Source: Isoptericola luteus (GTDB lineage: Bacteria; Actinomycetota; Actinomycetes; Actinomycetales; Cellulomonadaceae). Taken from it: a stretch of DNA of 64,000 nucleotides. Position 1 is the first letter of the stretch. Every line of letters begins with the position of its first letter. A program made the position numbers and the translations under genes. Location: the NCBI RefSeq assembly GCF_020297055.1, contig NZ_JAIXCQ010000002.1, positions 372,001 to 436,000 on the forward strand. Direction: 5' to 3'. The notes under the pieces were generated by a model. That model searched no databases. It worked only from the letters and a program-made list of their open reading frames with translations, and was not told the DNA's origin. Shown here piece after piece: positions 8,159 to 55,335 of the stretch.

Positions 8159-8259
8159 GCCGAGATAGAGAAGGCTGACGCCGAGATAGAGAGGGTGCGG
8201 ACCGCAACACTTGCGGTCCGCACCCTCTCTATCTCGGCGTCAGCCTTCTCTATCTCGGC
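8159..8259. repeat. 49-bp perfect palindrome with CGAGATAGAGA repeats, 3' of rpoC
   Basis: Arms 8159-8207 and 8211-8259 are perfect reverse complements around a 3-nt loop. Each arm holds two copies of CGAGATAGAGA (starting at 8161 and 8182, mirrored at 8226 and 8247). It begins only 5 nt after the rpoC stop and is far larger than a normal terminator hairpin. It probably terminates rpoBC. The same 11-mer recurs at 55.2-55.3 kb, again at gene ends. Confidence 0.85.
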
Positions 8260-15899: not shown

Positions 15900-16062
15900 C
15901 TCGCGCGGGCACACCAGCGGACGCCCTCGGTTCTGGGGTGATGAGGACGTTGTCTCGGTGGCCGCCATATGCCGCCCAAGAAACGGTTGTCGTCCCACGA
16001 TACTCGCGTCGCGGCACCGATGCCAGACGCACCGGGGCGACGTGCGTCACCCCGACGATGTC

Positions 16063-16126
16063 CGACGCACCGACGCACCGACGCACCGACGCACCGACGC
16101 ACCGACGCACCGACGCACCGACGCCC
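16063..16126. repeat. 8-bp tandem repeat, CGACGCAC x 7 plus a degenerate copy
   Basis: Seven exact head-to-tail copies of CGACGCAC run from 16063 to 16118, followed by CGACGCCC. It lies between the rplL terminator and the rpoB promoter and is not inside a credible gene. Such arrays vary in copy number by slippage. Confidence 0.9.
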
Positions 16127-16170
16127 GTCAGCGCGCCCGCTCCCCCGCCGCTCGCCCGGCCGGGGACGCC

Positions 16171-20413: not shown

Positions 20414-22354
20414 TCAGTCGTTCCGGGCGGACGCAGACCCCTCCTGCGGCCGGAGCCCGGTGCTCAAGGTGATCGCGTCCCAGACCTGCGCGCACCGTGC
20501 GGCATCACCCGCCGCACCGTCCGGAACCCGCGGCTCCACGATCCCTCCGTCCAGCAGGTGCCGGGCCAGCTCGCCCGCGAGCACCGGCGCCGCGAACGAG
20601 GTACCGCTCCAGATCGCGAACCCGCCCTCGAAGCCCTCCGGGTCGATCGTGGCACGGTGCCCGTCCGAGAACAGCTCGCGCATGAATCGGGAGGGCGCGA
20701 TGACGCCGTCCATGCTCACCGGCGCCGTGCTGACCAGGGCCGACCCGGGTCGCAGGCACGTCACCCAGTCCCCGTCGTTGCTGAACAAGGCGGTGGTGCC
20801 GTCCGGGTTGCGCGCACCGACCGCGACGAGCGGGGGCTCCTCGACCGACAACGGCTCGAGAGGTGTCGGGGGCTCCGCACGCCGGTCCAGCCGGGGGGCG
20901 AACGCCGCCGGGAACGTCTCGCGCACCTGCCCGTCGTTCCCGCTGGAGCAGACGACCGCGACCCCCCAGCGGCGCAGCTCACGCAGCACGGTGCCCAACG
21001 GAAGGTCGAAGTCCCTGTCCTGCGGCCGCTCGTGGTAGTAGCCGAGCGACAGGACCGCCACGTCCACGGGCGCGTAGCCGTCGACGCCGGCCAGGCCGAG
21101 GAGATGCCACAGGAGCAGCCGCCGCAGCGAACGGAGCAGGTCGCGCTCCGAGATGACACCGGACCCACCGTAGACGCGCGGGGCCAGGATCACGGCGTCC
21201 GGGCACTGCTGGTGGACGAGCCCCGCCATGAAGGTGCCGTGCCCAGCCACCGGGTCGAGCGGGCCCACGAGGGGCTCGATCGAGACGCCACCGATCTCCG
21301 GGTCCTGGTAGTCGTGCGCAGGCTCGGGGCTGAGCCCCACCGGCCTGCCCACGACCCGCGGGTCCCGGATCACGACGTCGGGCCGCGACCGGTCGTCCTC
21401 CGTCCAGCCCACGCCGACCGGGCGTTGGGCACCGTCGAGCCCGAACCAGGGGTGAGGTCCGACGCCCGTGTCCATGAGCGCCACCACCGGACGCCGTCGC
21501 CCGTCGTCACCGACGTACGGGTCGTCGCCCGCCGGGATCTCGCTCCGCGGCACGGCGCCGACCCAGGCCACCGGCTGGCGACCGCCCGATCCGGCCGCGG
21601 TGTACTCGGCCAGCCCGCCGATCGGGTGACCCATCGTGATCGGGTGACCCATCGTGATCGGATGACCCATCGTGATCGGATGACCCATCGTGATCGGGTG
21701 ACCCATCGTGATCGGGTTCCCGGTGATGAACGGCTGGGTGGCCGTGAAGCTCTGCGGCTGGCTCGCGGCCCCGCCGCCGATACCACCGGGGACGATGACG
21801 TGGTCGAGGGCGAGCGAGATCTCGTCGGGGCCGGCGGCGGCCTGGACGGACACGCTCCCGGCCGGCCAGGGCAGCGTGTAGCCCAGGACCTCATCGCTGG
21901 GACGTGCGTCGTGTCTGGCCCACGATCCGCGCACCGCGGTGAGCAGGTTCCAGCCGTCCGGCAAGCCGCCCTCGTCGAGCCGTACCAGCACGGCGGAGGT
22001 GCCGAAGACCTGACGCAACCGTGCGCGCAGCGCGTCGTCGAAGCCCCCGAGGTCGGCGGCCTCGGTGAGGAGGTCCAGGTCGTCGTACGTCTCGGGCTCG
22101 ATCTCGACGTTGACGCCGTGCCGCCACGCCGCGTGCCGCAGGCGCCGCAGCCAGCGCGGGGCCCGCCCTTCCCGCGGCGGTGCCTCGACGTCGAGCAGCA
22201 GCCGGTCCCCGACGTACCAGGTGGGCTGCGGGGAGGCCTGCGAGCCGGACCGCCGGGCGGCCGTCGGGTCGAGGGTGCGGGTGCGCCACTGCAGACGCTG
22301 CGGCGTGTCGGACGACCTCTGCTGCGGCGCGTCCGAGGATCCTGGCGCGCTCAC
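20414..22354 (-). CDS. Cytoplasmic subtilisin-family (S8) serine protease
   Basis: 646 residues from a GTG that overlaps the previous gene's stop by four bases (GTGA). The catalytic triad is complete: Asp295 (LMDTGVG), His372 (GHGTFMAG) and Ser586 (SGTSFAAP), with the oxyanion Asn473 (SSGND). There is no signal peptide or propeptide-like start, so secretion is unlikely. The N-terminal ~210 residues are an unassigned domain. Residues 214-249 form a PITMGH hexapeptide repeat linking it to the protease. The next gene, 50 nt on, encodes the TPR-CHAT protein, so two different peptidases are co-expressed. Confidence 0.92.
   Translation of the reverse strand: MSAPGSSDAPQQRSSDTPQRLQWRTRTLDPTAARRSGSQASPQPTWYVGDRLLLDVEAPPREGRAPRWLRRLRHAAWRHGVNVEIEPETYDDLDLLTEAADLGGFDDALRARLRQVFGTSAVLVRLDEGGLPDGWNLLTAVRGSWARHDARPSDEVLGYTLPWPAGSVSVQAAAGPDEISLALDHVIVPGGIGGGAASQPQSFTATQPFITGNPITMGHPITMGHPITMGHPITMGHPITMGHPIGGLAEYTAAGSGGRQPVAWVGAVPRSEIPAGDDPYVGDDGRRRPVVALMDTGVGPHPWFGLDGAQRPVGVGWTEDDRSRPDVVIRDPRVVGRPVGLSPEPAHDYQDPEIGGVSIEPLVGPLDPVAGHGTFMAGLVHQQCPDAVILAPRVYGGSGVISERDLLRSLRRLLLWHLLGLAGVDGYAPVDVAVLSLGYYHERPQDRDFDLPLGTVLRELRRWGVAVVCSSGNDGQVRETFPAAFAPRLDRRAEPPTPLEPLSVEEPPLVAVGARNPDGTTALFSNDGDWVTCLRPGSALVSTAPVSMDGVIAPSRFMRELFSDGHRATIDPEGFEGGFAIWSGTSFAAPVLAGELARHLLDGGIVEPRVPDGAAGDAARCAQVWDAITLSTGLRPQEGSASARND
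21621..21716 (-). repeat. 18-bp in-frame tandem repeat in the S8 protease gene
   Basis: Five near-identical 18-bp units encode PITMGH x 5 ahead of the protease domain. Units differ only by GGGTGA/GGATGA. Copy number is a multiple of three bases, so slippage would change linker length without a frameshift. Confidence 0.9.
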
Positions 22355-34292: not shown

Positions 34293-34324
34293 ACGTCCTT
34301 GGTCGGTGCGCGCCTGGCGCCGGG

Positions 34325-34939
<615 letters not shown>

Positions 34940-41177: not shown

Positions 41178-41304
41178 CCGCCCTCTGATCGTTGTGAGCG
41201 GGGGGGGGGGGGCCCCCCGGGGGGCCCCGGGGGGCCCAACCCCCCCCCCCCCCCCCCCCCCCCCCCGCCCCCCCCCCCCCCCGCCCACAACGATCAGAGG
41301 GCGG
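41178..41304. repeat. CTGATCGTTGTG-bounded palindrome with G/C homopolymer core, copy 1
   Basis: CTGATCGTTGTG at 41185-41196 and its reverse complement at 41286-41297 flank about 90 bp made almost only of G and C runs. The symmetry extends 7 bp outward (CCGCCCT/AGGGCGG). It lies between the convergent ends of the L,D-transpeptidase gene and murB; the murB stop is inside the right arm. The same bounding 12-mer occurs at 49838-49932. Homopolymer lengths may not be reliable. Confidence 0.85.
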
Positions 41305-45081: not shown

Positions 45082-45831
45082 CTAGCTGGTCCGCTCCGTG
45101 GCTCCGGCGGTGGCGGTGCTGGCGGCGTGGGTCGCGGCGATCTCCAGCCCTCGTTCCCTGCCGCAGAACGCCAGCACCGCCTCCTTGGGTCCGTGCGGCG
45201 AGGTGAACCGGACGGTGCCCGCGGGCTCGAAGCCGAAGGCGACCATGCGGGCGACGGCGGCCCGGTTCCGGGCGTCCGGCTCCACGACCAGGCGACGCGT
45301 CCCCGGCGCGGCGAGCGCGAAGCCGAGCGCGGCGGGGCCGACCACCGACCAGGGCTCGACGCCGTGGGCGGCGGCCGGCCCGTCACCGCCCTTGAAGAAG
45401 TGCAGGCCCAGGTCCCCCTCGCGCACCTCGTACGCGGCGGCGACCGGGTCGTCCTCCGGGTGGTAGAGCTGCACCAGCGCGACCGGCTCACCGTCCCAGC
45501 GCAGCAGGTACGCCTCGTGGGTGGGCAGCGCGTCGACGAAGGCGTACGTGGCGCGCAGCTCCTCGCGGTCCAGGTCGGCCAGTCCCCAGAAGCCCGCGTG
45601 CCGCGCCGTCACCCACGCGTGCAGCACGTCGAGGTCGCCGTCGGGGTCCACCACGTGCGCCGTGACCTTCCCCGCTCCCGGCAGCTCGCGGCGCCACACC
45701 TCCTGCCCGCGCCGGCCGTGCAGGAGCCGGTCGGACGGCGAGGTGCGGGGCGGGGTCGCCCGGTCAGCCGGCGTGCGGTCGGTGGTCGTGCGGTCGGTGG
45801 TCGTGGGGCCGGGGGCGGGTGAGGTGGTCAT
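45082..45831 (-). CDS. Second siderophore-type GNAT acyltransferase
   Basis: 249 residues, starting MTTSPAPGPTTTDRTTT with a Thr/Asp/Pro-rich N-terminus of about 45 residues. The acyltransferase core includes VLHAWVTARHAGFWGL, LGLHFFKGG and RLVVEPDARNRAAVARMVAFGF, matching IucB/RhbD-like hydroxylamine acyltransferases. It parallels the N-terminal domain of the IucA/IucC fusion in the same operon (VHAWLAHPASVFWRM, RVVVEPDVANRAVAAKNAAAGF), so the two look paralogous. Its ATG overlaps the acylase stop. It may load a different acyl group from the fused domain. Confidence 0.88.
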   Translation of the reverse strand: MTTSPAPGPTTTDRTTTDRTPADRATPPRTSPSDRLLHGRRGQEVWRRELPGAGKVTAHVVDPDGDLDVLHAWVTARHAGFWGLADLDREELRATYAFVDALPTHEAYLLRWDGEPVALVQLYHPEDDPVAAAYEVREGDLGLHFFKGGDGPAAAHGVEPWSVVGPAALGFALAAPGTRRLVVEPDARNRAAVARMVAFGFEPAGTVRFTSPHGPKEAVLAFCGRERGLEIAATHAASTATAGATERTS

Positions 45832-48077
45832 CGGTCCTCCTGCGGGTGCTCGGGACGCAGCCGCGCCCAGTCGGTCTCGATCGCCGTGGTGCGGGCCTGC
45901 GCCCACAGCTCGTGCTGGTCCGCGAAATGCGGCGAGCCAGGGTCGCCGCTCGCGCCGAAGGGGACGCCCCACCGGCTCCGGCGTCGGTCGCCGAGGTCCC
46001 ACACCCAGCGCGCCACCGAACCACGGGAGGCGAGGAACGTCACCCCGGGCACCCCGCCGGTGCAGCGGACCGTGTCGCCGGCGCCACCGAGCGCCACCGC
46101 GGGGACGTCCGGCACGACGACGCCCTGCGCGTCGGCGCCCGCGAGCTCGCCGAGCGCGTGCAGCGGGTGCAGCCGGTGCAGGTCTCCCCACGTCGCGGCC
46201 GCCCCGGAGAACGGGTCGCCCTCGCCGTCGGGCCCGTCGCCGGTGCGGTCGCCGGTCTCGCGGCGCAGCGAGGCCACGACCTCCGCGAACGCGGCCGCCG
46301 CCTCGGCACGCGCGTCGAGCCGGTGCCCGCCGACGACGCGACCGTCGGCGGCGGCGAGGAGGCGCGGCAGGACATCGGACACGCGGGCGGTGACGTCCAG
46401 CCAGGGCGCGAAGATCGCCGGGAGCGCCGGATCGGCGTGCAGCGGCGCGAGCGCCGGGTGCGCCGCCATCCGCCGCACCAGCGCGTGCCGCCAGCGGGCG
46501 AACACCGCCGCGTCGGTGCTCTCCGCGTCCATCCGGGCGCCGGCCGCCGCCCACGCCCGCAGCCGGTCCGCGAGACGGCCCGCCTCGTCGTCCGGCGCGT
46601 CGTCCGGCTCGGCCTCGGCGTCGAGCCAGCCCACCAGCGCCGCGGCGCCGGCGTCCTGCGTGTCGCCCAGGATCCGCTCCTGTGCGCGGGGCGTCGCCCC
46701 GCCGGCCGTGCCGCCCGACGCCTGCGCCAGCAGCGCCCGGATGCGGTCGGCGCGGTGCTCGGCGTAGGCGTACCCGAGGTCGGCGGCAGGGTCGCGCGGG
46801 CGCTCGTTGGCGTCCACGGCGACGTCGGCGACCTGGACGACGGCGGCGGGCGGGCGCCACGGCGGCGCCACCGCGGGTGCCGGGCGCGGGCGCTCGCGGT
46901 CCGCACGGGCGACGTCCGGCACGAGTCCCGCGGTGAGGCTCACCACAGACCCGCCGGAGTCGGCGGCCAGCACCCGGTGCACCGGGTCGACCCAACCGGC
47001 GAAGGCCGCGGCGACGTCGTCGGCCGTGACGGCGTGCTGGAGCCGTCGCCACGCCGCGACACCGGCGTCCGCCCTCACGCGCACCGGCCAGCGCACGCTG
47101 TGCCGGTCGGTGACCACGGGCCCGCGAGGAGTCTCGGTCCACACCACCGGGACCGGCTCGCCCCCGCGCACGGGCACCAGGTCGGCTCCGGACGCCGTGA
47201 CCTGCCCCGGCAGGTCCTCGGTGAACAGCTCGACGTGGTGTGCCAGCGCGTTGGTGATGCCCCACGCGGCGGACCCGGCCCGCCCGCTCGTCTGGCCGAA
47301 GTGCGGCACGCCCGGTACGCCGGGGAAGGCCAGGCCCAGCACGTCGAACGCGCCGTCGGGCCCCGTGCACGCGAGCCGCACCTGCTGGTAGACGCCCGGC
47401 AGCTCGAGCAGCCGGTGCGGGTCGCCGGCCAGCAGCGGGAGCCCCGACGCGGTCCGCGAGCCGTGCAGCGCCCAGGCGTTGGACCCGGACGACGGCCCGC
47501 CGTCTGCCCCCAGCAGCCCGAGGGCCCGCGCGTCGTCACCGAGCGTGCGCAGCGCGTGCTCACGCCAGAGCAGGTGCGCGAACCCGCTGAACAGCACGTG
47601 GTTGAGCAGGAACACCCCGACCGGCATCCATTCGGGCCACGCGTCGTCGTCGGGCAGCGGCGCACCCCCGAGCGCGCCCCGGAGGCGGTCGATCTCGGGG
47701 GCGTCGCTGCCGCCCGAGGCAAGCCCGGCGCGCACCCCGGCCGCGTGAGCGGCCACCCACCGGCGCTCGGCCGGCGGCAGCGCGTCCCAGACCCGCAGCA
47801 CGGTGTCCCGCAGCCGCACGCGCACGGCGAACCGGTCCCACGCCAGCCCGGCCGCGCCGAACCGGGCCGCGAACCGGCCCTCGACCTGCCACCGGGCGAC
47901 CAGGACCTGCCAGCCCCGGTCCAGGCCCGCCGCATAGCCCTGCCCGAAGGACACGTCGAGCTCGGTGACGCCCCGCACGTGCGGCACGCCCCACGCGTCG
48001 CGGAACAGCTCGAACCGGCTCCCCGTCGCGCCTCCCGGGACGCCGTCCGCGGCACGGGCACCGGTACCGGGCGTCAC
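45828..48077 (-). CDS. Penicillin acylase-family (Ntn) hydrolase in the siderophore operon
   Basis: 749 residues from a GTG overlapping the synthetase stop (GTGA). Family features: the start FELFRDAWGVPHVRG, the autoprocessing site Gly198-Ser199 in SSGSNAWAL with Ser199 as nucleophile of the mature beta chain, DPHRLLELPGVYQQVRL, and the later GVVVPDVPAVALGGAGDTVR stretch. These enzymes cleave amides of acyl side chains. No signal peptide is visible, unlike the periplasmic PvdQ that deacylates pyoverdine precursors in Pseudomonas. A maturation or recycling role for the hydroxamate is inferred only from context. Confidence 0.88.
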   Translation of the reverse strand: MTPGTGARAADGVPGGATGSRFELFRDAWGVPHVRGVTELDVSFGQGYAAGLDRGWQVLVARWQVEGRFAARFGAAGLAWDRFAVRVRLRDTVLRVWDALPPAERRWVAAHAAGVRAGLASGGSDAPEIDRLRGALGGAPLPDDDAWPEWMPVGVFLLNHVLFSGFAHLLWREHALRTLGDDARALGLLGADGGPSSGSNAWALHGSRTASGLPLLAGDPHRLLELPGVYQQVRLACTGPDGAFDVLGLAFPGVPGVPHFGQTSGRAGSAAWGITNALAHHVELFTEDLPGQVTASGADLVPVRGGEPVPVVWTETPRGPVVTDRHSVRWPVRVRADAGVAAWRRLQHAVTADDVAAAFAGWVDPVHRVLAADSGGSVVSLTAGLVPDVARADRERPRPAPAVAPPWRPPAAVVQVADVAVDANERPRDPAADLGYAYAEHRADRIRALLAQASGGTAGGATPRAQERILGDTQDAGAAALVGWLDAEAEPDDAPDDEAGRLADRLRAWAAAGARMDAESTDAAVFARWRHALVRRMAAHPALAPLHADPALPAIFAPWLDVTARVSDVLPRLLAAADGRVVGGHRLDARAEAAAAFAEVVASLRRETGDRTGDGPDGEGDPFSGAAATWGDLHRLHPLHALGELAGADAQGVVVPDVPAVALGGAGDTVRCTGGVPGVTFLASRGSVARWVWDLGDRRRSRWGVPFGASGDPGSPHFADQHELWAQARTTAIETDWARLRPEHPQEDR

Positions 48078-50698
48078 GACCAGGCGCCGTCCGCCACCGG
48101 GTTCGCCATCGACCCCGCGTACAGCAGCGAGGCCGACTGGTCGGCGAGGTCCACCATCTGCAGGGTGTTGCGCAGCTGCAGCCGGTTGAGGCACGAGTGC
48201 GCGAACCGCGGCGCGCGCAGGTCGACGCCCGCGCCGACGCCGGGGTGCTCGTCGCGGTGCCGGTCCAGCGTCGCCCGCACCGTCGCCCAGAACCGGTCCT
48301 CGGCCAGGACGCCGTCCACGGCGAGGATACCGGCGAGGTGCCGCAGCACCCCGTCGAACACGTCGGTGAAGACGGCGAGCGCCTGCTCGTCGTCGTCGAC
48401 GGTCGTGCCGATCCGCGCCACCTGCGGCGGCAGCCCCGCGCCGCCCGACAGGACGGACACCTCCTCGCCGACGTCCTTCATGAGCGCGCGGCGCACCACA
48501 CCGTCGCGCAGCACCAGGACGAGGTTCTCCCCGTGCGGCATGAAGGCGAGCCGGTGCGCGAGCAGGCAGTGCACCACCGGGTACAGGTAGGCGTCGAGGT
48601 ACGCCTGCAACCAGCGCTGCGGCTCCACGCCCGACGCCCGCACGAGCGACGTGACCAGCGCCGTCCCCGCGGCGTCGCGGTGCAGCAGGGCGGCCATGGT
48701 GACGAGCCGTTCGCCCGGTCCCGTGCGCGGCAGCGGGGACTCGCGCCACAGTGCGGCGAGCATCTTGCGGTGCGCGCTGGGGCGCGCGGTGCGGTGGTAG
48801 ACGTCGCCGGTGTAGCCGACCGAGGCCACCTCCCGCAGGATCCGGAAGCCGGCGGCGCCCAGCGTCGGGTCGGAGTCCACGACGTCGGCCACCCAGTCGT
48901 TGATCGCGGGCGTGGCCCGCATGTACGCCGGGGAGAGCCCCCGCAGGAACCCCATGTTCTGGATGGCCAGCGCCGTCTTGACGTAGTGCCGTCCCGGCCG
49001 CGTGCGGTTGAACAAGGTGCGGATCGACTGCTGGGGCTGGTACTCGTCGGCTCCCGGGCCGAGGGGCACGAGATCGTCGCGCGCGACGTCCGCCGCGAAC
49101 GTGATCGGCACCCGGTGCTGCCACTGCCAGGGGTGCACGGGCAGGTAGAGGTAGTCCGCCCGGTCCAGTCCGCGCGCGGCGAGCCGGTCGCCGAAGGCCG
49201 CCCGCTCGGCGCCGCTCAGCTCCGCGTCGTACAGACGGCGCTCGGACTGGTCGGCCGCGAGCGCCAGGTGCGTGTGCTCGCGCCGGGCGGCGAGCCACAT
49301 CAGGCGCAGGCGCTGCCCGCGCTCCGGGGCGTAGGCGCGGTAGTCGTCGAGGGAGAAGCCGATCCGCCCGTTGTTGGCCACGAAGCCCGGGTGCCCCTCG
49401 GTCATCGCCGCCTCGGTCTCCTGGAAGGCGTCGGCGCGACGTCGCGCGTCGTCGTCCGCTTCGTCGTCCGCTTCGTCGTCCGTGTCGTGGGCGGCGGGCG
49501 CCGGAGCGAGCGTGGCCACGAGGGCCGGGACCTGCGGCGAGCCGCCGGCGAGCTCGCGCTCCCGCTTGGCGCACGCTGCCGCGAGCGTGGCCGAGAGCTC
49601 CTCGAGATAGGTGGCGACCAGGTCGTCGGGGATCGACAGCAACGGCTGCAGCTCGACGACCAGCTCGAGCACGTCGACCGGGAGCTCGGCCCGGCCCGCC
49701 GTGCGGGTGATCGACGCCGGGTCCACCACCCAGTGCTCGAGCGCGAACGTGCGCGCCGCGAACCGGTACGTGACACCGTCGAGGGCGAGGGCGTACCCGG
49801 TCGGCCGGCTCGCGCCCCCTGCCCCGCCGCCCCACCCCTGATCGTTGTGAGCGGGGGGGGGGGGCGGGGGGGGGGGGGGGGCGGGGGCGGGGGGCCCCCC
49901 CCCCCCCCCCCCCCCCCGCCCACAACGATCAGGGGTGGGGCGGAACAGCCGCTCGTGGGCCAGCTCGCCGAGCACCTTGGCGGCCAGGTGCCGGTGCGCG
50001 GCCTCGGCCAGGTCGGGGCGCAGGTGCGGTGCGGCGTCGACGCCCGGGCCCAGCGGGGACGCCGCGAAGTCCTCGCGCGTGCAGACGCTCAGCGCCGCGC
50101 GCTTGGTGTGCCCGCCGTCGGTGACGTCGACGTGGCGCAGCACGCGGAACCCGGCCGCCGCGTTCTTGGCGGCGACGGCACGGTTCGCGACGTCGGGCTC
50201 GACGACCACCCGCGCGGCCCCGCGGCCCGCGGGGCGCGGGGCCAGGCAGAACTCCACGACGGCGCGCATCACCGCGTCGGTGAGGCCGCGCGTGCGGTGG
50301 GCCCGGTCGAGGGGCGGCGGCGCGACCAGCAGGTGCATCCCGAGGTCGCCGGGCACCGGCTCGTGCACGCCGGCGAGCGGCCCGTGCGCCGGGTCGTAGG
50401 TCTCGACGTAGAAGGTGGGTGCGCCGTCGACGCACCCGAGCCACGCATCCTGGTGCGCGTCGGCGACGACGACGGTGAGGTAGTCACGCACCTCTGCCGC
50501 ACCCAGGTGTCCCATCCGCCAGAACACCGACGCCGGGTGGGCCAGCCAGGCGTGCACGGTGGCGGCGTCGCGGGCCGGGTCGACCGGCTCCAGCGTGAGG
50601 ACGCCGACGCGCGGCGCCTGCGACGCGAACGCCGGGTGCGGGACGGCGGGCACGTCCGCCGTCGCGGTCGCCGCGGTCGTCTCGGTCGCCGCGGTCAT
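48074..50698 (-). CDS. GNAT acyltransferase - IucA/IucC siderophore synthetase fusion
   Basis: 874 residues. Residues ~25-215 are a GNAT acyltransferase (DesC-like); from ~235 on it is an NIS synthetase (DesD/IucA/IucC), with HPWQWQHRVPI, the ATP-binding PQQSIRTLFNRTRPGRHYVKTALA stretch, FMPHGENLVLVL and the ferric-reductase-like C-terminal region. It would acylate N-hydroxycadaverine and condense the units with ATP. Between LFRPTP and YALALDGVTYRF, where relatives have only a few residues, a G/C-tract palindrome adds about 39 codons of Gly/Pro (residues ~253-291). The frame stays open only if the homopolymer lengths in this assembly are right. Confidence 0.88.
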   Translation of the reverse strand: MTAATETTAATATADVPAVPHPAFASQAPRVGVLTLEPVDPARDAATVHAWLAHPASVFWRMGHLGAAEVRDYLTVVVADAHQDAWLGCVDGAPTFYVETYDPAHGPLAGVHEPVPGDLGMHLLVAPPPLDRAHRTRGLTDAVMRAVVEFCLAPRPAGRGAARVVVEPDVANRAVAAKNAAAGFRVLRHVDVTDGGHTKRAALSVCTREDFAASPLGPGVDAAPHLRPDLAEAAHRHLAAKVLGELAHERLFRPTPDRCGRGGGGGGGPPAPAPPPPPPPPPAHNDQGWGGGAGGASRPTGYALALDGVTYRFAARTFALEHWVVDPASITRTAGRAELPVDVLELVVELQPLLSIPDDLVATYLEELSATLAAACAKRERELAGGSPQVPALVATLAPAPAAHDTDDEADDEADDDARRRADAFQETEAAMTEGHPGFVANNGRIGFSLDDYRAYAPERGQRLRLMWLAARREHTHLALAADQSERRLYDAELSGAERAAFGDRLAARGLDRADYLYLPVHPWQWQHRVPITFAADVARDDLVPLGPGADEYQPQQSIRTLFNRTRPGRHYVKTALAIQNMGFLRGLSPAYMRATPAINDWVADVVDSDPTLGAAGFRILREVASVGYTGDVYHRTARPSAHRKMLAALWRESPLPRTGPGERLVTMAALLHRDAAGTALVTSLVRASGVEPQRWLQAYLDAYLYPVVHCLLAHRLAFMPHGENLVLVLRDGVVRRALMKDVGEEVSVLSGGAGLPPQVARIGTTVDDDEQALAVFTDVFDGVLRHLAGILAVDGVLAEDRFWATVRATLDRHRDEHPGVGAGVDLRAPRFAHSCLNRLQLRNTLQMVDLADQSASLLYAGSMANPVADGAWS
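49827..49943. repeat. CTGATCGTTGTG-bounded palindrome with G/C core, copy 2, inside the synthetase gene
   Basis: CTGATCGTTGTG (49838-49849) and its reverse complement (49921-49932) flank about 70 bp of G and C runs. Symmetry extends 11 bp further on each side (CCGCCCCACCC / GGGTGGGGCGG). The whole is 117 bp, exactly 39 codons, and keeps the host frame open. It shares its bounding sequence with the element at 41.2 kb but has different outer flanks. Confidence 0.85.
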
Positions 50699-52062
50699 CG
50701 CGCTGCCTCCGTGTCTCGAGGGGTGGTCGACGCGGCGGGAACGCCGCCGGGCAGACCGAAGGTCTGGAAGACGATCCGCTCCTCGACCGGGTACGGCTCC
50801 CGGCCGGTCACCCGGGCGAGGATCACGGAGTTGCGCCAGGGCGCGAACCCCAGGTCCGGCGCCGTGACGCCGTGGGTGTGCACCTCGGTGCCGGACGCGT
50901 GCAGCCGCCCGGCGTCGTCCACGGTGTAGTCGCGGGCGACGTCCAGGCGGCCCAGCTCGTCGAGCCGAGCCAGTCCCGGCGCCAGGAAGCCCGGCACACC
51001 GGAGCCGTACCCGGTCGCGGCGACGACGGCGCGCGTACGGTGCACCGCGACCGTGCCCAGCTGGCCGTGGCGCAGCGTGAGCTCGAGCTCCCCCTGACCC
51101 TCGGCGACGCGCGCCGCGACGACCTCCGTGTCGGTCAGGAGCGTCGTCGGGACCTCCCGCCCGAGGGCGGTGCGACGGTAGAGCGTGTCGTAGATGTCGT
51201 CGACGAGGTCGGCGCTGATGCCCTTGAACAGGCCCCGCTGCTCGCGACCGAGCAGCTCGCGCAGGTCCGTCGGCAGCGACCGGTAGTGGTCGGTGTACTC
51301 CGGCGACGTCATCTCGAGCGTGAGCTTCGTGTACTCCATGGGGAAGAACCGGGGCGAGCGGGTCACCCAGTCCACGCGGTACGTATCGAGGCCCGCGCCC
51401 TCGAGGAGGTCGCGGTACACCTCGGCGGCCGACTGGCCCGACCCGACGACCGTCACGGCGCCCGAGGCCGTCAGCGCGTCGCGGTGCGCGAGGTAGTCCG
51501 CGCTGTGGACCACCGGGCCGGCGCCGGCGTCCTGCCCGGCCGCCTCGGCGAGGCCCGCCAGCGGCGCGGGCAGCCGCGGCGTCGTCCCGGTGCCGAGGAC
51601 GACGTGCCGCGCCCGGTACGTCCGGGTGCGCGTGGACGCCGCCGGGTCGGTGACCTCGGCGACCACGGCCAGGTCGTCGGAGCCGGGGACCCGGTCCACC
51701 CGGACCACCCGGTGCCCCCAGCGCAGCGACGGGAGCATGCCCGCGACCCAGCGGCAGTACTGGTCGTACTCGGACCGCAGCGGGTAGAACGACTCGCGGA
51801 TGTAGAAGGGGTAGAGCCGCCCGGTGGCCTTGAGGAACGCGAGGAACGAGTACGGCGAGGTGGGGTCCGCCATCGTCACCAGGTCGGCGAGGAACGGCAC
51901 CTGGATCGTGGCGCCGTCGAGCATCATGCCCGGGTGCCAGGAGAACCCTGCCCGCTGGTCGAGGAACAGCGCGTCGACGTCGTCCAGCGGGGCCGAGAGC
52001 GCGGCAAGCCCCAGGTTGAACGGCCCGATGCCGACGCCGATCACGTCGTAGGTGCGGGTCAT
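50695..52062 (-). CDS. Lysine/cadaverine N-monooxygenase (DesB/IucD type)
   Basis: 455 residues. FAD-binding GVGIGPFNLGLAAL at the N-terminus, the substrate/FAD segment GMMLDGATIQVPFLADLVT, the NADPH-binding VVGSGQSAAEVYRDLL, and ATGYGSGVP near the C-terminus define the N-hydroxylating flavoprotein monooxygenases. In this operon, after a decarboxylase, the likely substrate is cadaverine, giving N-hydroxycadaverine. Starts and stops overlap both neighbours (ATGA), so the enzymes are made in step. Confidence 0.93.
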   Translation of the reverse strand: MTRTYDVIGVGIGPFNLGLAALSAPLDDVDALFLDQRAGFSWHPGMMLDGATIQVPFLADLVTMADPTSPYSFLAFLKATGRLYPFYIRESFYPLRSEYDQYCRWVAGMLPSLRWGHRVVRVDRVPGSDDLAVVAEVTDPAASTRTRTYRARHVVLGTGTTPRLPAPLAGLAEAAGQDAGAGPVVHSADYLAHRDALTASGAVTVVGSGQSAAEVYRDLLEGAGLDTYRVDWVTRSPRFFPMEYTKLTLEMTSPEYTDHYRSLPTDLRELLGREQRGLFKGISADLVDDIYDTLYRRTALGREVPTTLLTDTEVVAARVAEGQGELELTLRHGQLGTVAVHRTRAVVAATGYGSGVPGFLAPGLARLDELGRLDVARDYTVDDAGRLHASGTEVHTHGVTAPDLGFAPWRNSVILARVTGREPYPVEERIVFQTFGLPGGVPAASTTPRDTEAAR

Positions 52063-53633
52063 CGGGCGACCTCCTGCGAGAGCAGCTCCTGGCCCGCGAG
52101 CAGGCCGTGCGCGGCGGACCGCACGAGCTCGAGCACGGCGCGGACGTCGCCGGGCGTGGCGTCCGGGTTGAGCAGCGTGAGCTTGAGGCAGGGCCGCCCG
52201 TCGAGCACCGTCTTGGCGACGAGCGCGCGGCCGGAGTCGAACAGCACGCGGCGCACCTGCGGCACGAGGGCGTCGGCGCGCGCGTCGTCCAGGCCGTCGG
52301 GCTGGAAGCGGAACAGGACGGTGGACAGGTCGGTGGGTGCCAGGAGGCGCAGCTCCTCGTCGGCGGCGAGGTCGGCGTGCACGGCGGCCGCGAGATCGCA
52401 CACGGCGTCGACCAGCTCGCCGATCCCGGCGGCGCCGACGGCGCGCAGCGTCGCCCACAGCTTGAGCGCGTCGAACCGGCGTGTCGTCTGCAGCGACTTG
52501 TCGACGAGGTTGAGGTCCGGGTTGGGCACCCCGGCCTCCTGCGCGGGGTTGAGGTAGTCGGCGTTCCAGGTGGTGCGCGCCAGGTCGGCGCGGTCCCGGA
52601 CGAGCAGGGCGCTCGACGACACCGGCTGGAAGAAGGTCTTGTGGAAGTCGATCGTGACGCTGCGGGCCCGCTCGATCCCGGCCAGCAGGTGCCGGCGGCG
52701 CGACGAGACCAGCAGCCCGCCGCCGTACGCGGCGTCCACGTGCAGCCAGGCGCCAGCGGCGTCGCACAGGTCGGCGACCGGCTCCAGCGGGTCGACGCAG
52801 CCCCGGTCGGTGGTGCCCGCGGTCGCGACGACGGCCATGACCACGTCGCCTGCCCGCGCGGTGCTCACCAGCGAGGCGGCGAGCGCCTCGGGGTCCATCC
52901 GTCCGTCCGTGTCGACGCCGACGGCCACCACGGCGTCGTCGTCGAGCCCCAGGAGCAGCGCCGCCCGGGCGACGCTGAAGTGGCTCGACGCGGTGGTGAG
53001 CACCCGCAGCCGCGCGAGGCGCTCCTGGCGCGCGTGCCCGCGCAGCCGGGCGCCGTGGGCGTCGGTCAGGGCGCGCTCACGCGCCAGGTGGAGCGCCTGC
53101 AGGTTCGACTGCGTGCCACCGGAGGTGAAGACGCCGTCGCCGGAGGCGAACCCGACCCGGCCGGCCGCCCACTCGACGAGCCGCTGCTCCATGAGCGTGG
53201 CCACGGTGGACTGGTCGTACGTGTCGACCGAGGTGTTGATCGCGGCGAGCATCGCCTCCGCCCCGACAGCGGCCAGGGCGACGGGGCAGTTGAGGTGCGC
53301 CGCGTACGCCGGGTGGTGGAACCAGACCGCGTGCGGCGCGAACAGGTCGGACGTCTCGCGCAGTGCGTCCGCGGTGCCCACGGGGAGCCCGTCCAGGTCG
53401 ACGGCGTCGACGAGGCCCTGGAGCTCGGGGCGGCTCGCCCCGGAGAACGGCTGCTCGACCGCCGCGATCCTGGCCGCGAGGTCGTCGGCGACGTCGTGCA
53501 CGAGGTCGGCGTACCGTGCCGCGGTCGCGCCTCGCAGCAGCACGTCGCCCGTCGGCGTCGGTCCCGGGACGCTCCCGAGGAACCGGGGACGGGGTGCGGT
53601 CGTCGTGCTGTCGACGGACAGGGGGCTCAACAT
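52059..53633 (-). CDS. PLP-dependent group II decarboxylase (lysine decarboxylase, DesA-like)
   Basis: 524 residues from MLSPLSVDSTTTAP, with GAGGAG upstream. An in-frame ATG 20 codons earlier would start inside the iron box, so it is rejected. Features: FTSGGTQSNLQAL, HVDAAYGGGLL, and the PLP lysine in TIDFHKTFFQPVSSS. Relatives decarboxylate lysine to cadaverine for desferrioxamine, though 2,4-diaminobutyrate or ornithine cannot be excluded. It is the first gene of the operon, directly under two IdeR-like boxes. Confidence 0.92.
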   Translation of the reverse strand: MLSPLSVDSTTTAPRPRFLGSVPGPTPTGDVLLRGATAARYADLVHDVADDLAARIAAVEQPFSGASRPELQGLVDAVDLDGLPVGTADALRETSDLFAPHAVWFHHPAYAAHLNCPVALAAVGAEAMLAAINTSVDTYDQSTVATLMEQRLVEWAAGRVGFASGDGVFTSGGTQSNLQALHLARERALTDAHGARLRGHARQERLARLRVLTTASSHFSVARAALLLGLDDDAVVAVGVDTDGRMDPEALAASLVSTARAGDVVMAVVATAGTTDRGCVDPLEPVADLCDAAGAWLHVDAAYGGGLLVSSRRRHLLAGIERARSVTIDFHKTFFQPVSSSALLVRDRADLARTTWNADYLNPAQEAGVPNPDLNLVDKSLQTTRRFDALKLWATLRAVGAAGIGELVDAVCDLAAAVHADLAADEELRLLAPTDLSTVLFRFQPDGLDDARADALVPQVRRVLFDSGRALVAKTVLDGRPCLKLTLLNPDATPGDVRAVLELVRSAAHGLLAGQELLSQEVAR

Positions 53634-53665
53634 CGATATGACTCCTCGGGACGCGGACGCGCGGA

Positions 53666-53701
53666 CTAAGGCCAGGCTTGCCTTAGTGAGCATTACCTAA
53701 G
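53666..53701 (-). promoter_or_regulatory. Two overlapping IdeR/DtxR-type iron boxes
   Basis: TAAGGCCAGGCTTGCCTTA (53667-53685) matches the 19-bp consensus TWAGGTWAGSCTWACCTWA at 16 positions. Overlapping it, the minus strand reads TTAGGTAATGCTCACTAAG (53700-53682), with a perfect left half-site and about 14 matches. They lie 33-67 nt upstream of the decarboxylase start and should repress the siderophore operon in high iron. The divergent C39 peptidase gene starts about 150 nt away. Confidence 0.85.
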
Positions 53702-55210: not shown

Positions 55211-55217
55211 CCCCTCC

Positions 55218-55334
55218 CGCGAGATAGAGAGGTCCCAGGGCCGAGATAGAGAGGCCCCACAGCCGAGATAGATGACCTCTCTATCTCGTGCCGGGGACCT
55301 CTCTATCTCGGCGGGGTGGGGTCTCTATCTCGCG
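55218..55334. repeat. Nested CGAGATAGAGA inverted repeats between convergent genes
   Basis: Three forward copies of CGAGATAGA(GA) start at 55220, 55242 and 55264, and three reverse copies at 55278, 55300 and 55322, giving a three-level nested palindrome. It lies exactly between the C39 stop and the amidase stop and can act as a terminator on both strands. The same 11-mer builds the palindrome at 8159-8259. Confidence 0.85.
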
Positions 55335-55335
55335 G

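What the first reader, a model, noticed from the sequence alone, without database searches (positions are those of the whole stretch)
49827..49943. The same palindrome lies in frame inside the siderophore synthetase: insertion, phase switch or artefact
The 117-bp element (39 codons) separates LFRPTP from YALALDGVTYRF, which are normally only a few residues apart in IucA/IucC proteins, and encodes Gly and Pro runs. It keeps the frame only if the G and C tracts have exactly these lengths. If real, tract slippage would switch the iron operon's key enzyme on and off, with polar effects on the coupled acylase and acyltransferase genes. The symmetric outer flanks (11 bp) differ from those of copy 1.
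Basis: partly seen in the sequence, partly recalled or inferred. Interest (0 to 1): 0.65.

Follow-up and report, generated by a model that had tools for sequence, protein, structure and literature searches.

The report
Coding palindrome hidden by sequencing artefact
The long G and C runs in this iron-scavenging gene are most likely a sequencing artefact, but they hide a real short DNA palindrome of a kind that this bacterium and some relatives carry after many genes and, in reading frame, inside several enzyme genes.

Summary
The palindrome is present at 49827-49943 and in frame in the assembly. The G/C runs are not credible: this assembly has 98 starts of 12-G runs in 35 clusters, against 0-6 in each of 17 other genus genomes, and the runs point inward (17 clusters G-left/C-right, 0 reversed, 9 same base at both ends). 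So nothing supports a tract-length switch. The arms, however, match the ends of a real dispersed hairpin, CGY-TGTGAGC...GCTCACA-RCG: 58 nt, a 60-nt unit of 20 codons, at 37 places in this genome, and with matches in 12 of 18 genus genomes and 19 of 150 family genomes. Of 31 own copies, 22 lie within 60 nt after a gene's stop codon (random 3.7%) and five lie in frame inside genes. The first biotin carboxylase insert is 20 residues against a solved homologue. The synthetase copy has a phase that fits a 58-nt element. It works like Rickettsia coding palindromes and intragenic REPs, but differs in length and tags, and no Y1 transposase was found in this genome. New variant of a known kind; mobiliser and interior of this copy unknown.

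The parts
48074..50698 (-). acyltransferase/NIS siderophore synthetase fusion gene that holds the insert
   Evidence: ORF; Pfam Acetyltransf_8, IucA_IucC and FhuF; nearest solved chains DfoC 5o7o and DesD
49827..49943 (.). whole palindrome as assembled (copy 2)
   Evidence: inverted repeat I15
49845..49925 (.). element proper, YTGTGAGC...GCCCACAR: 81 nt as assembled, against a 60-nt unit in resolved copies
   Evidence: coordinates checked; unit
49853..49917 (.). G and C tracts, not to be trusted
   Evidence: sequence; tract statistics
49827..49844 (.). left outer arm, mirror image of 49926-49943; in part peculiar to this site
49926..49943 (.). right outer arm, mirror image of 49827-49844
41178..41304 (.). 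copy 1, between genes, with the same arms and its own G/C tracts (element from 41193 to 41289 as assembled, 97 nt)

Best explanation
Two things lie on top of each other. (1) The long G and C runs are technical: at this strong hairpin, reads from either side most likely lost signal, which two-colour instruments call as G, and the assembler joined G-tailed reads from the left to C-headed (reverse-complement) reads from the right. (2) The hairpin itself is real: a copy of a dispersed 60-nt palindrome of Isoptericola-like actinomycetes. In this genome most copies sit just after stop codons. Because the unit is 20 codons long and open in two of its three frames, an insertion into a protein loop adds 20 residues without shifting the frame, and copies in tolerant loops survive. 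The synthetase copy lies in such a variable linker. Shown by calls: tract statistics, element family, position after stop codons, in-frame copies, 20-residue size at one site, and agreement of phase in the synthetase. Inferred: the optical cause of the G calls (recalled knowledge), the true interior and length of this copy, that the synthetase still works, and template switching as the origin of the mirror-image outer flanks.
For: Tracts: 98 starts here, 22 in the other 17 genus genomes together, and 1, 0, 0, 0 in the four single-contig ones; 17 clusters G-to-C, 0 C-to-G; 7 of 35 clusters with N10 gaps, 6 at or near contig ends; L036 turns from clean element into G16. Element: 16 copies of 58 nt; 89.8% of cells paired, 0 of 500 shuffles as high; 37 own places; 12 of 18 genus and 19 of 150 family genomes. 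Position: 22 of 31 within 60 nt after a stop codon, random 3.7%. In frame: five own copies, three of the four proteins with a Pfam domain running through an insert. Size: 20-residue gap against 9yx0; loop of 28 residues against 8 in the four closest relatives. Orthologues: MoeA site 1 occupied in 5 of 16 loci, site 2 in 5 of 15. Synthetase: 79 nt = 58 + 21 as assembled, remainder 1 modulo 3 like 58.
Against: The interior of the synthetase copy is not resolved, so its length and frame in the cell are not shown. No other synthetase locus of the genus has the element there. Only 9 of 35 tract clusters bear the element's arm by a strict test, so the tracts are not specific to it. A few tracts occur in other genomes (up to 6). 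Of 24 best-scoring copies located in loci of other genomes, none lay in frame inside a gene; in-gene copies elsewhere were found only by looking at MoeA and the carboxylase. Two of five covariation measures do not exceed shuffles. Loop lengths of more distant carboxylases vary from about 5 to 14, which blurs the size outside the four closest. The optical mechanism was not tested with reads.
Confidence: 0.82

Rival explanations
1. The tracts are real and vary in length by slippage, so that the synthetase is phase-variable.
For: The assembled ORF is in frame, and slippage in homopolymers is a known switch (recalled).
Against: Tracts are an assembly-wide feature here and nearly absent in relatives; they point only inward; resolved copies of the element lack them.
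Confidence: 0.03
2. Everything is artefact: no element lies in the synthetase, and the arms come from fold-back molecules made in library preparation.
For: The outer arms mirror each other exactly for 18 nt, as a fold-back would give, and the 5' side fits the native LFRP(E)PD.
Against: The arms carry the family's own terminal sequence CGYTGTGAGC in an open frame used by other in-gene copies; tract-free copies also have mirrored outer flanks, up to 19 nt in L211.
Confidence: 0.09
3. The palindrome is a terminator or other hairpin that separates two genes, acyltransferase and synthetase, here.
For: 22 of 31 copies follow a stop codon; hairpins of -58 to -73 kcal/mol in five resolved copies.
Against: The ORF is open through it; orthologues read through this linker; the break lies inside the synthetase part, after AHERLFRP, not between the two domains; flanks have no T-run.
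Confidence: 0.04

Closest known systems
Rickettsia palindromic elements (RPE)
   Same: Palindromic elements inserted in frame in unrelated genes and outside genes, adding a peptide (passages of PMC10969869; of PMC6649704).
   Different: About 150 bp in the review against a 60-nt unit here; Rickettsia against actinomycetes; no sequence comparison with RPEs was made.
GTAG/CGTC-tagged REPs, including those inside genes
   Same: Short palindromes mostly downstream of coding regions, some wholly inside ORFs in several species (passages of PMC3733652).
   Different: 20-40 bp with a GTAG or CGTC end in that paper; here 58-60 nt ending in CGYTGTGAGC; no match to PF01797 in this genome.
MITEs
   Same: Dispersed short inverted repeats; some fuse in frame with ORFs (passages of PMC10969869).
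   Different: No parent transposon or target duplication was shown here.
Coding palindromes of nematomorph mitochondria
   Same: Long inverted repeats translated inside genes; template switching proposed for their upkeep (passages of PMC6649704).
   Different: That paper sets its repeats apart from inserted elements; here a shared terminal sequence marks an inserted family.

Membership tests
Rickettsia palindromic element | palindromic insertions in frame within unrelated protein genes | tested here: met
   five own copies in four genes; MoeA and carboxylase orthologues
Rickettsia palindromic element | length near 150 bp as given in the review | tested here: not met
   58-nt core, 69 nt in some MoeA copies; length from PMC10969869
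Rickettsia palindromic element | sequence relation to an RPE family | not tested
   no RPE sequence was fetched
GTAG/CGTC REP | GTAG or CGTC tag at one end | tested here: not met
   conserved ends are CGYTGTGAGC; columns beyond are not conserved
GTAG/CGTC REP | mostly downstream of coding regions | tested here: met
   22 of 31 own copies, random 3.7%
GTAG/CGTC REP | Y1 (RAYT-type) transposase in the genome | tested here: not met
   no PF01797 match in the own genome at E 0.001; 5 of 14 control genomes match. Other genomes were not searched
MITE | terminal inverted repeats in many dispersed copies | tested here: met
MITE | target-site duplication | tested here: inconclusive
   the flanking CG is its own mirror image, so duplication and arm cannot be told apart
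MITE | related autonomous transposon | not tested
   no search for a transposon with these ends was made
Intrinsic terminator | T-run after the hairpin | tested here: not met
   flank columns -4 to -15 are rich in C (G on the other side) without a T- or A-run

The most novel reading that the evidence does not exclude
A palindrome of exactly 20 codons acts in actinomycetes as a frame-neutral mobile module: moved by an unknown mechanism without a Y1 transposase of its own genome, it parks after genes and enters the same tolerant loops of core enzymes repeatedly and independently, giving 20-residue peptides in either of two frames, while template switching keeps its arms matched and extends them into the flanks.
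Probability: 0.35. Interest if true: 0.7.

Novelty: new variant of a known kind. Interest (0 to 1): 0.5.

Why it matters
It adds an actinomycete family to the few known cases of mobile palindromes translated inside enzymes, with a unit length that is itself a multiple of three. Because MoeA sites 1 and 2 are occupied in some species and empty in others, and read in two frames at site 1, gain, frame choice and decay can be followed. It also warns that long G/C runs in an assembly can mark real hairpins and corrupt the genes that hold them.

Tried and rejected
Rejected: a slippage switch. Rejected: an Rfam family (13 matches up to E 1 in six loci, none at the gathering score; those on the element are to microRNA models). 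Rejected: the 73-nt R1 matches in L300, L306 and L312, which I read as ordinary coding sequence conserved between the three. No help: searches for poly-G artefacts listed no paper that I opened; the two-colour mechanism is recalled. Searches for Isoptericola with palindromic, and for in-frame or intragenic palindromes in actinobacteria, listed nothing that by title and abstract start describes this element; papers in those lists were not opened except PMC10969869 and PMC3733652, and the library lacks most subscription journals, so absence from print is not shown. The 2002 paper on coding palindromes of Rickettsia is not held. Left open: whether the shared CTGATCG flank of copies 1, 2 and L036 marks a subfamily; the third copy was found by searching for that very string.

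Rows dropped before counts: one search read 36 regions; searches used 31 of them (L250, L255, L256, L257 and L264 left out as partial or beside tracts). Two of the 31 had N in a flank and were left out of the outer-flank statistic (29 counted). The place C21:50391 lies in the same region as C21:50282 and was not examined apart. In one search seven regions had the same best frame on both sides without a stop in the element; L247 and L258 (element ahead of a likely start codon) are not counted as in-gene, and L252 (C-terminal extension) is not either. The test of tract direction leaves out 6 clusters at or within about 170 nt of contig ends and 3 clusters with a single tract. In one search, 7 of 31 loci had no element that my pattern located. 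Site 2 of the carboxylase was read in 4 loci only. L278 looks like a decayed site-1 copy by eye and is not counted.

Full report
What is in the sequence. At 49827-49943 lies an inverted repeat with arms of 49 nt, 96% complementary. It is in frame in ORF 48074-50698 on the minus strand, an acyltransferase/siderophore-synthetase fusion by Pfam, nearest in solved structures to DfoC (5o7o) and DesD. A second copy, at 41178-41304, lies between genes. Both share CTGATCGTTGTGAGC and its mirror image and differ in their outer flanks, which mirror themselves.

The G and C runs are an artefact. The window's genome has 98 starts of runs of twelve or more G on the two strands. They fall in 35 clusters, all of which I read: 7 have an N10 gap beside them and 6 lie at or within about 170 nt of contig ends. 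The same pattern gave 98 here and 22 in the other 17 genomes of the genus together, 0 to 6 each; the four single-contig genomes gave 1, 0, 0 and 0. Of 26 clusters with at least two runs and away from contig ends, 17 begin with G and end with C, none begins with C and ends with G, and 9 begin and end with the same base. True palindromes should show both directions; G calls running inward from both sides give only the first. L036 shows clean element sequence that turns into G16. That two-colour instruments call missing signal as G is recalled, not from a call, and no reads were seen. Only 9 of the 35 clusters bear the element's arm by a strict test, 6 on both sides, so other sequences are affected too.

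The element is real. Among the loci fetched with a half-arm search, a pattern for GTGAGC...GCTCAC allowing 48 to 72 nt found 17 cases: 16 from this genome, all 58 nt with the outer T and A, and one of 52 nt in a relative's locus that does not look related. In the 25-pair stem 89.8% of cells pair, and the covariation score is 0.138; no one of 500 shuffles reached either. The counts of pairs changed on both sides (6) and of further pair types (16) do not exceed the shuffles. Flank columns are conserved for three further positions, CGY, and not beyond. A covariance model finds 37 distinct places in this genome (scored candidates were capped, so a lower bound), matches in 12 of 18 genus genomes including this one, and in 19 of 150 family genomes, 5 of 25 genera, under stricter filters. 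It does not find the two window copies, whose interiors are broken.

Where it sits. Of 31 copies examined in this genome, 22 lie within 60 nt after the stop codon of a gene with good coding score, 6 of them on both sides; 3000 random positions in the same stretches gave 3.7% and 0.1%. Five lie in frame inside genes: two in a biotin carboxylase, one in MoeA, one in a YjeF_N/Carb_kinase protein and one in a PPDK_N/PEP-utilizers protein. In the first three proteins a Pfam domain runs through an insert (Biotin_carb_N, MoeA_N, YjeF_N); in the last it lies between two domains, and no orthologue was compared for the last two. Against biotin carboxylase 9yx0 the first insert is a gap of 20 residues; the loop has 28 residues here and 8 in the four closest relatives G002, G010, G011 and G014, but about 5 to 14 in others. 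A decayed second copy in MoeA aligns as a 20-residue gap against E. coli MoeA.

Recurrence in the same loops. In MoeA of the genus, site 1 holds such a palindrome in 5 of 16 loci and site 2 in 5 of 15, with ends TGTGAGC or TGTGGGC and lengths of 58 or 69 nt, in ORFs without stops. At site 1 two species read it in the frame CER and three in the frame AVG or VVG, which suggests independent insertions or a change of frame. Site 1 of the carboxylase is occupied in 1 of 16 loci, site 2 in 2 of the 4 read. In G011 site 2 shows N and a proline run, and a G12 run lies beside it, so the same artefact may occur there. Against this, of 24 best-scoring copies located in loci of other genomes none lay in frame inside a gene.

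The synthetase copy. From TGTGAGC (49846) to GCCCACA (49924) the assembly has 79 nt, which is 58 + 21, so a canonical copy would keep the frame. Its frame (CER...AHN) is one of the two that are open in the element and is used by the MoeA and PPDK_N copies. Without the 60-nt unit and the 21 extra bases the linker of 47 residues would be 20, near the range in other species: 7-18 in 13 loci by pattern and about 30 in L072 by eye. DfoC has almost no residues here. None of the 16 other loci has the element at this place.

Mirror-image outer flanks. In copy 2 the coding-strand 5' side reads RPTPD and fits LFRP(E)PD of orthologues, so it is probably native and the other side its inverted copy. Copies without tracts show this as well: 3 of 29 have at least 6 exact outer pairs and one, L211, has 19; pairs of flanks from different copies reach 6 in 0.9% of 1624. 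Template switching can make and mend such arms (abstract of PMC8794818); for this element that is inference.

Comparison. It works like Rickettsia palindromic elements (passages of PMC10969869, and PMC6649704) and like REPs inside genes (passages of PMC3733652). I do not file it as either: length and tags differ, and no Y1 transposase match was found in this genome. I call it a new variant of a known kind, with an unknown mobiliser. Gene names such as L,D-transpeptidase and MurB beside copy 1 are by eye only.

Noticed in passing
8159-8259 and 55217-55335: A second palindrome family built on CCGAGATAGAGAGG, with arms of 49 nt (100% complementary) and 56 nt (77%); the same motif lies beside 3 of the 35 G/C tract clusters (L045, L046, L062).
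   Followed up: partly
window's genome, 35 clusters on 14 contigs: The G/C-run defect touches many gene ends and at least one gene of this public assembly, so its annotation near these places is doubtful.
   Followed up: partly
34308-34568: 18-nt tandem repeat (GACTTCGCGGAGACCGGG and variants), six codons per unit.
   Followed up: no
21602-21745: 18-nt tandem repeat GATCGGGTGACCCATCGT.
   Followed up: no
16062-16132: 8-nt tandem repeat CCGACGCA, a length that would shift a frame.
   Followed up: no
45082-53693: Minus-strand ORFs beside the synthetase look by eye like a PLP decarboxylase, a lysine N-hydroxylase, a penicillin-acylase-like enzyme and a second acyltransferase, as in a desferrioxamine-type operon (ORFs; names by eye).
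   Followed up: no
L265 (MoeA), second site: A decayed second copy in the same MoeA gene with a C9 run, in frame.
   Followed up: partly
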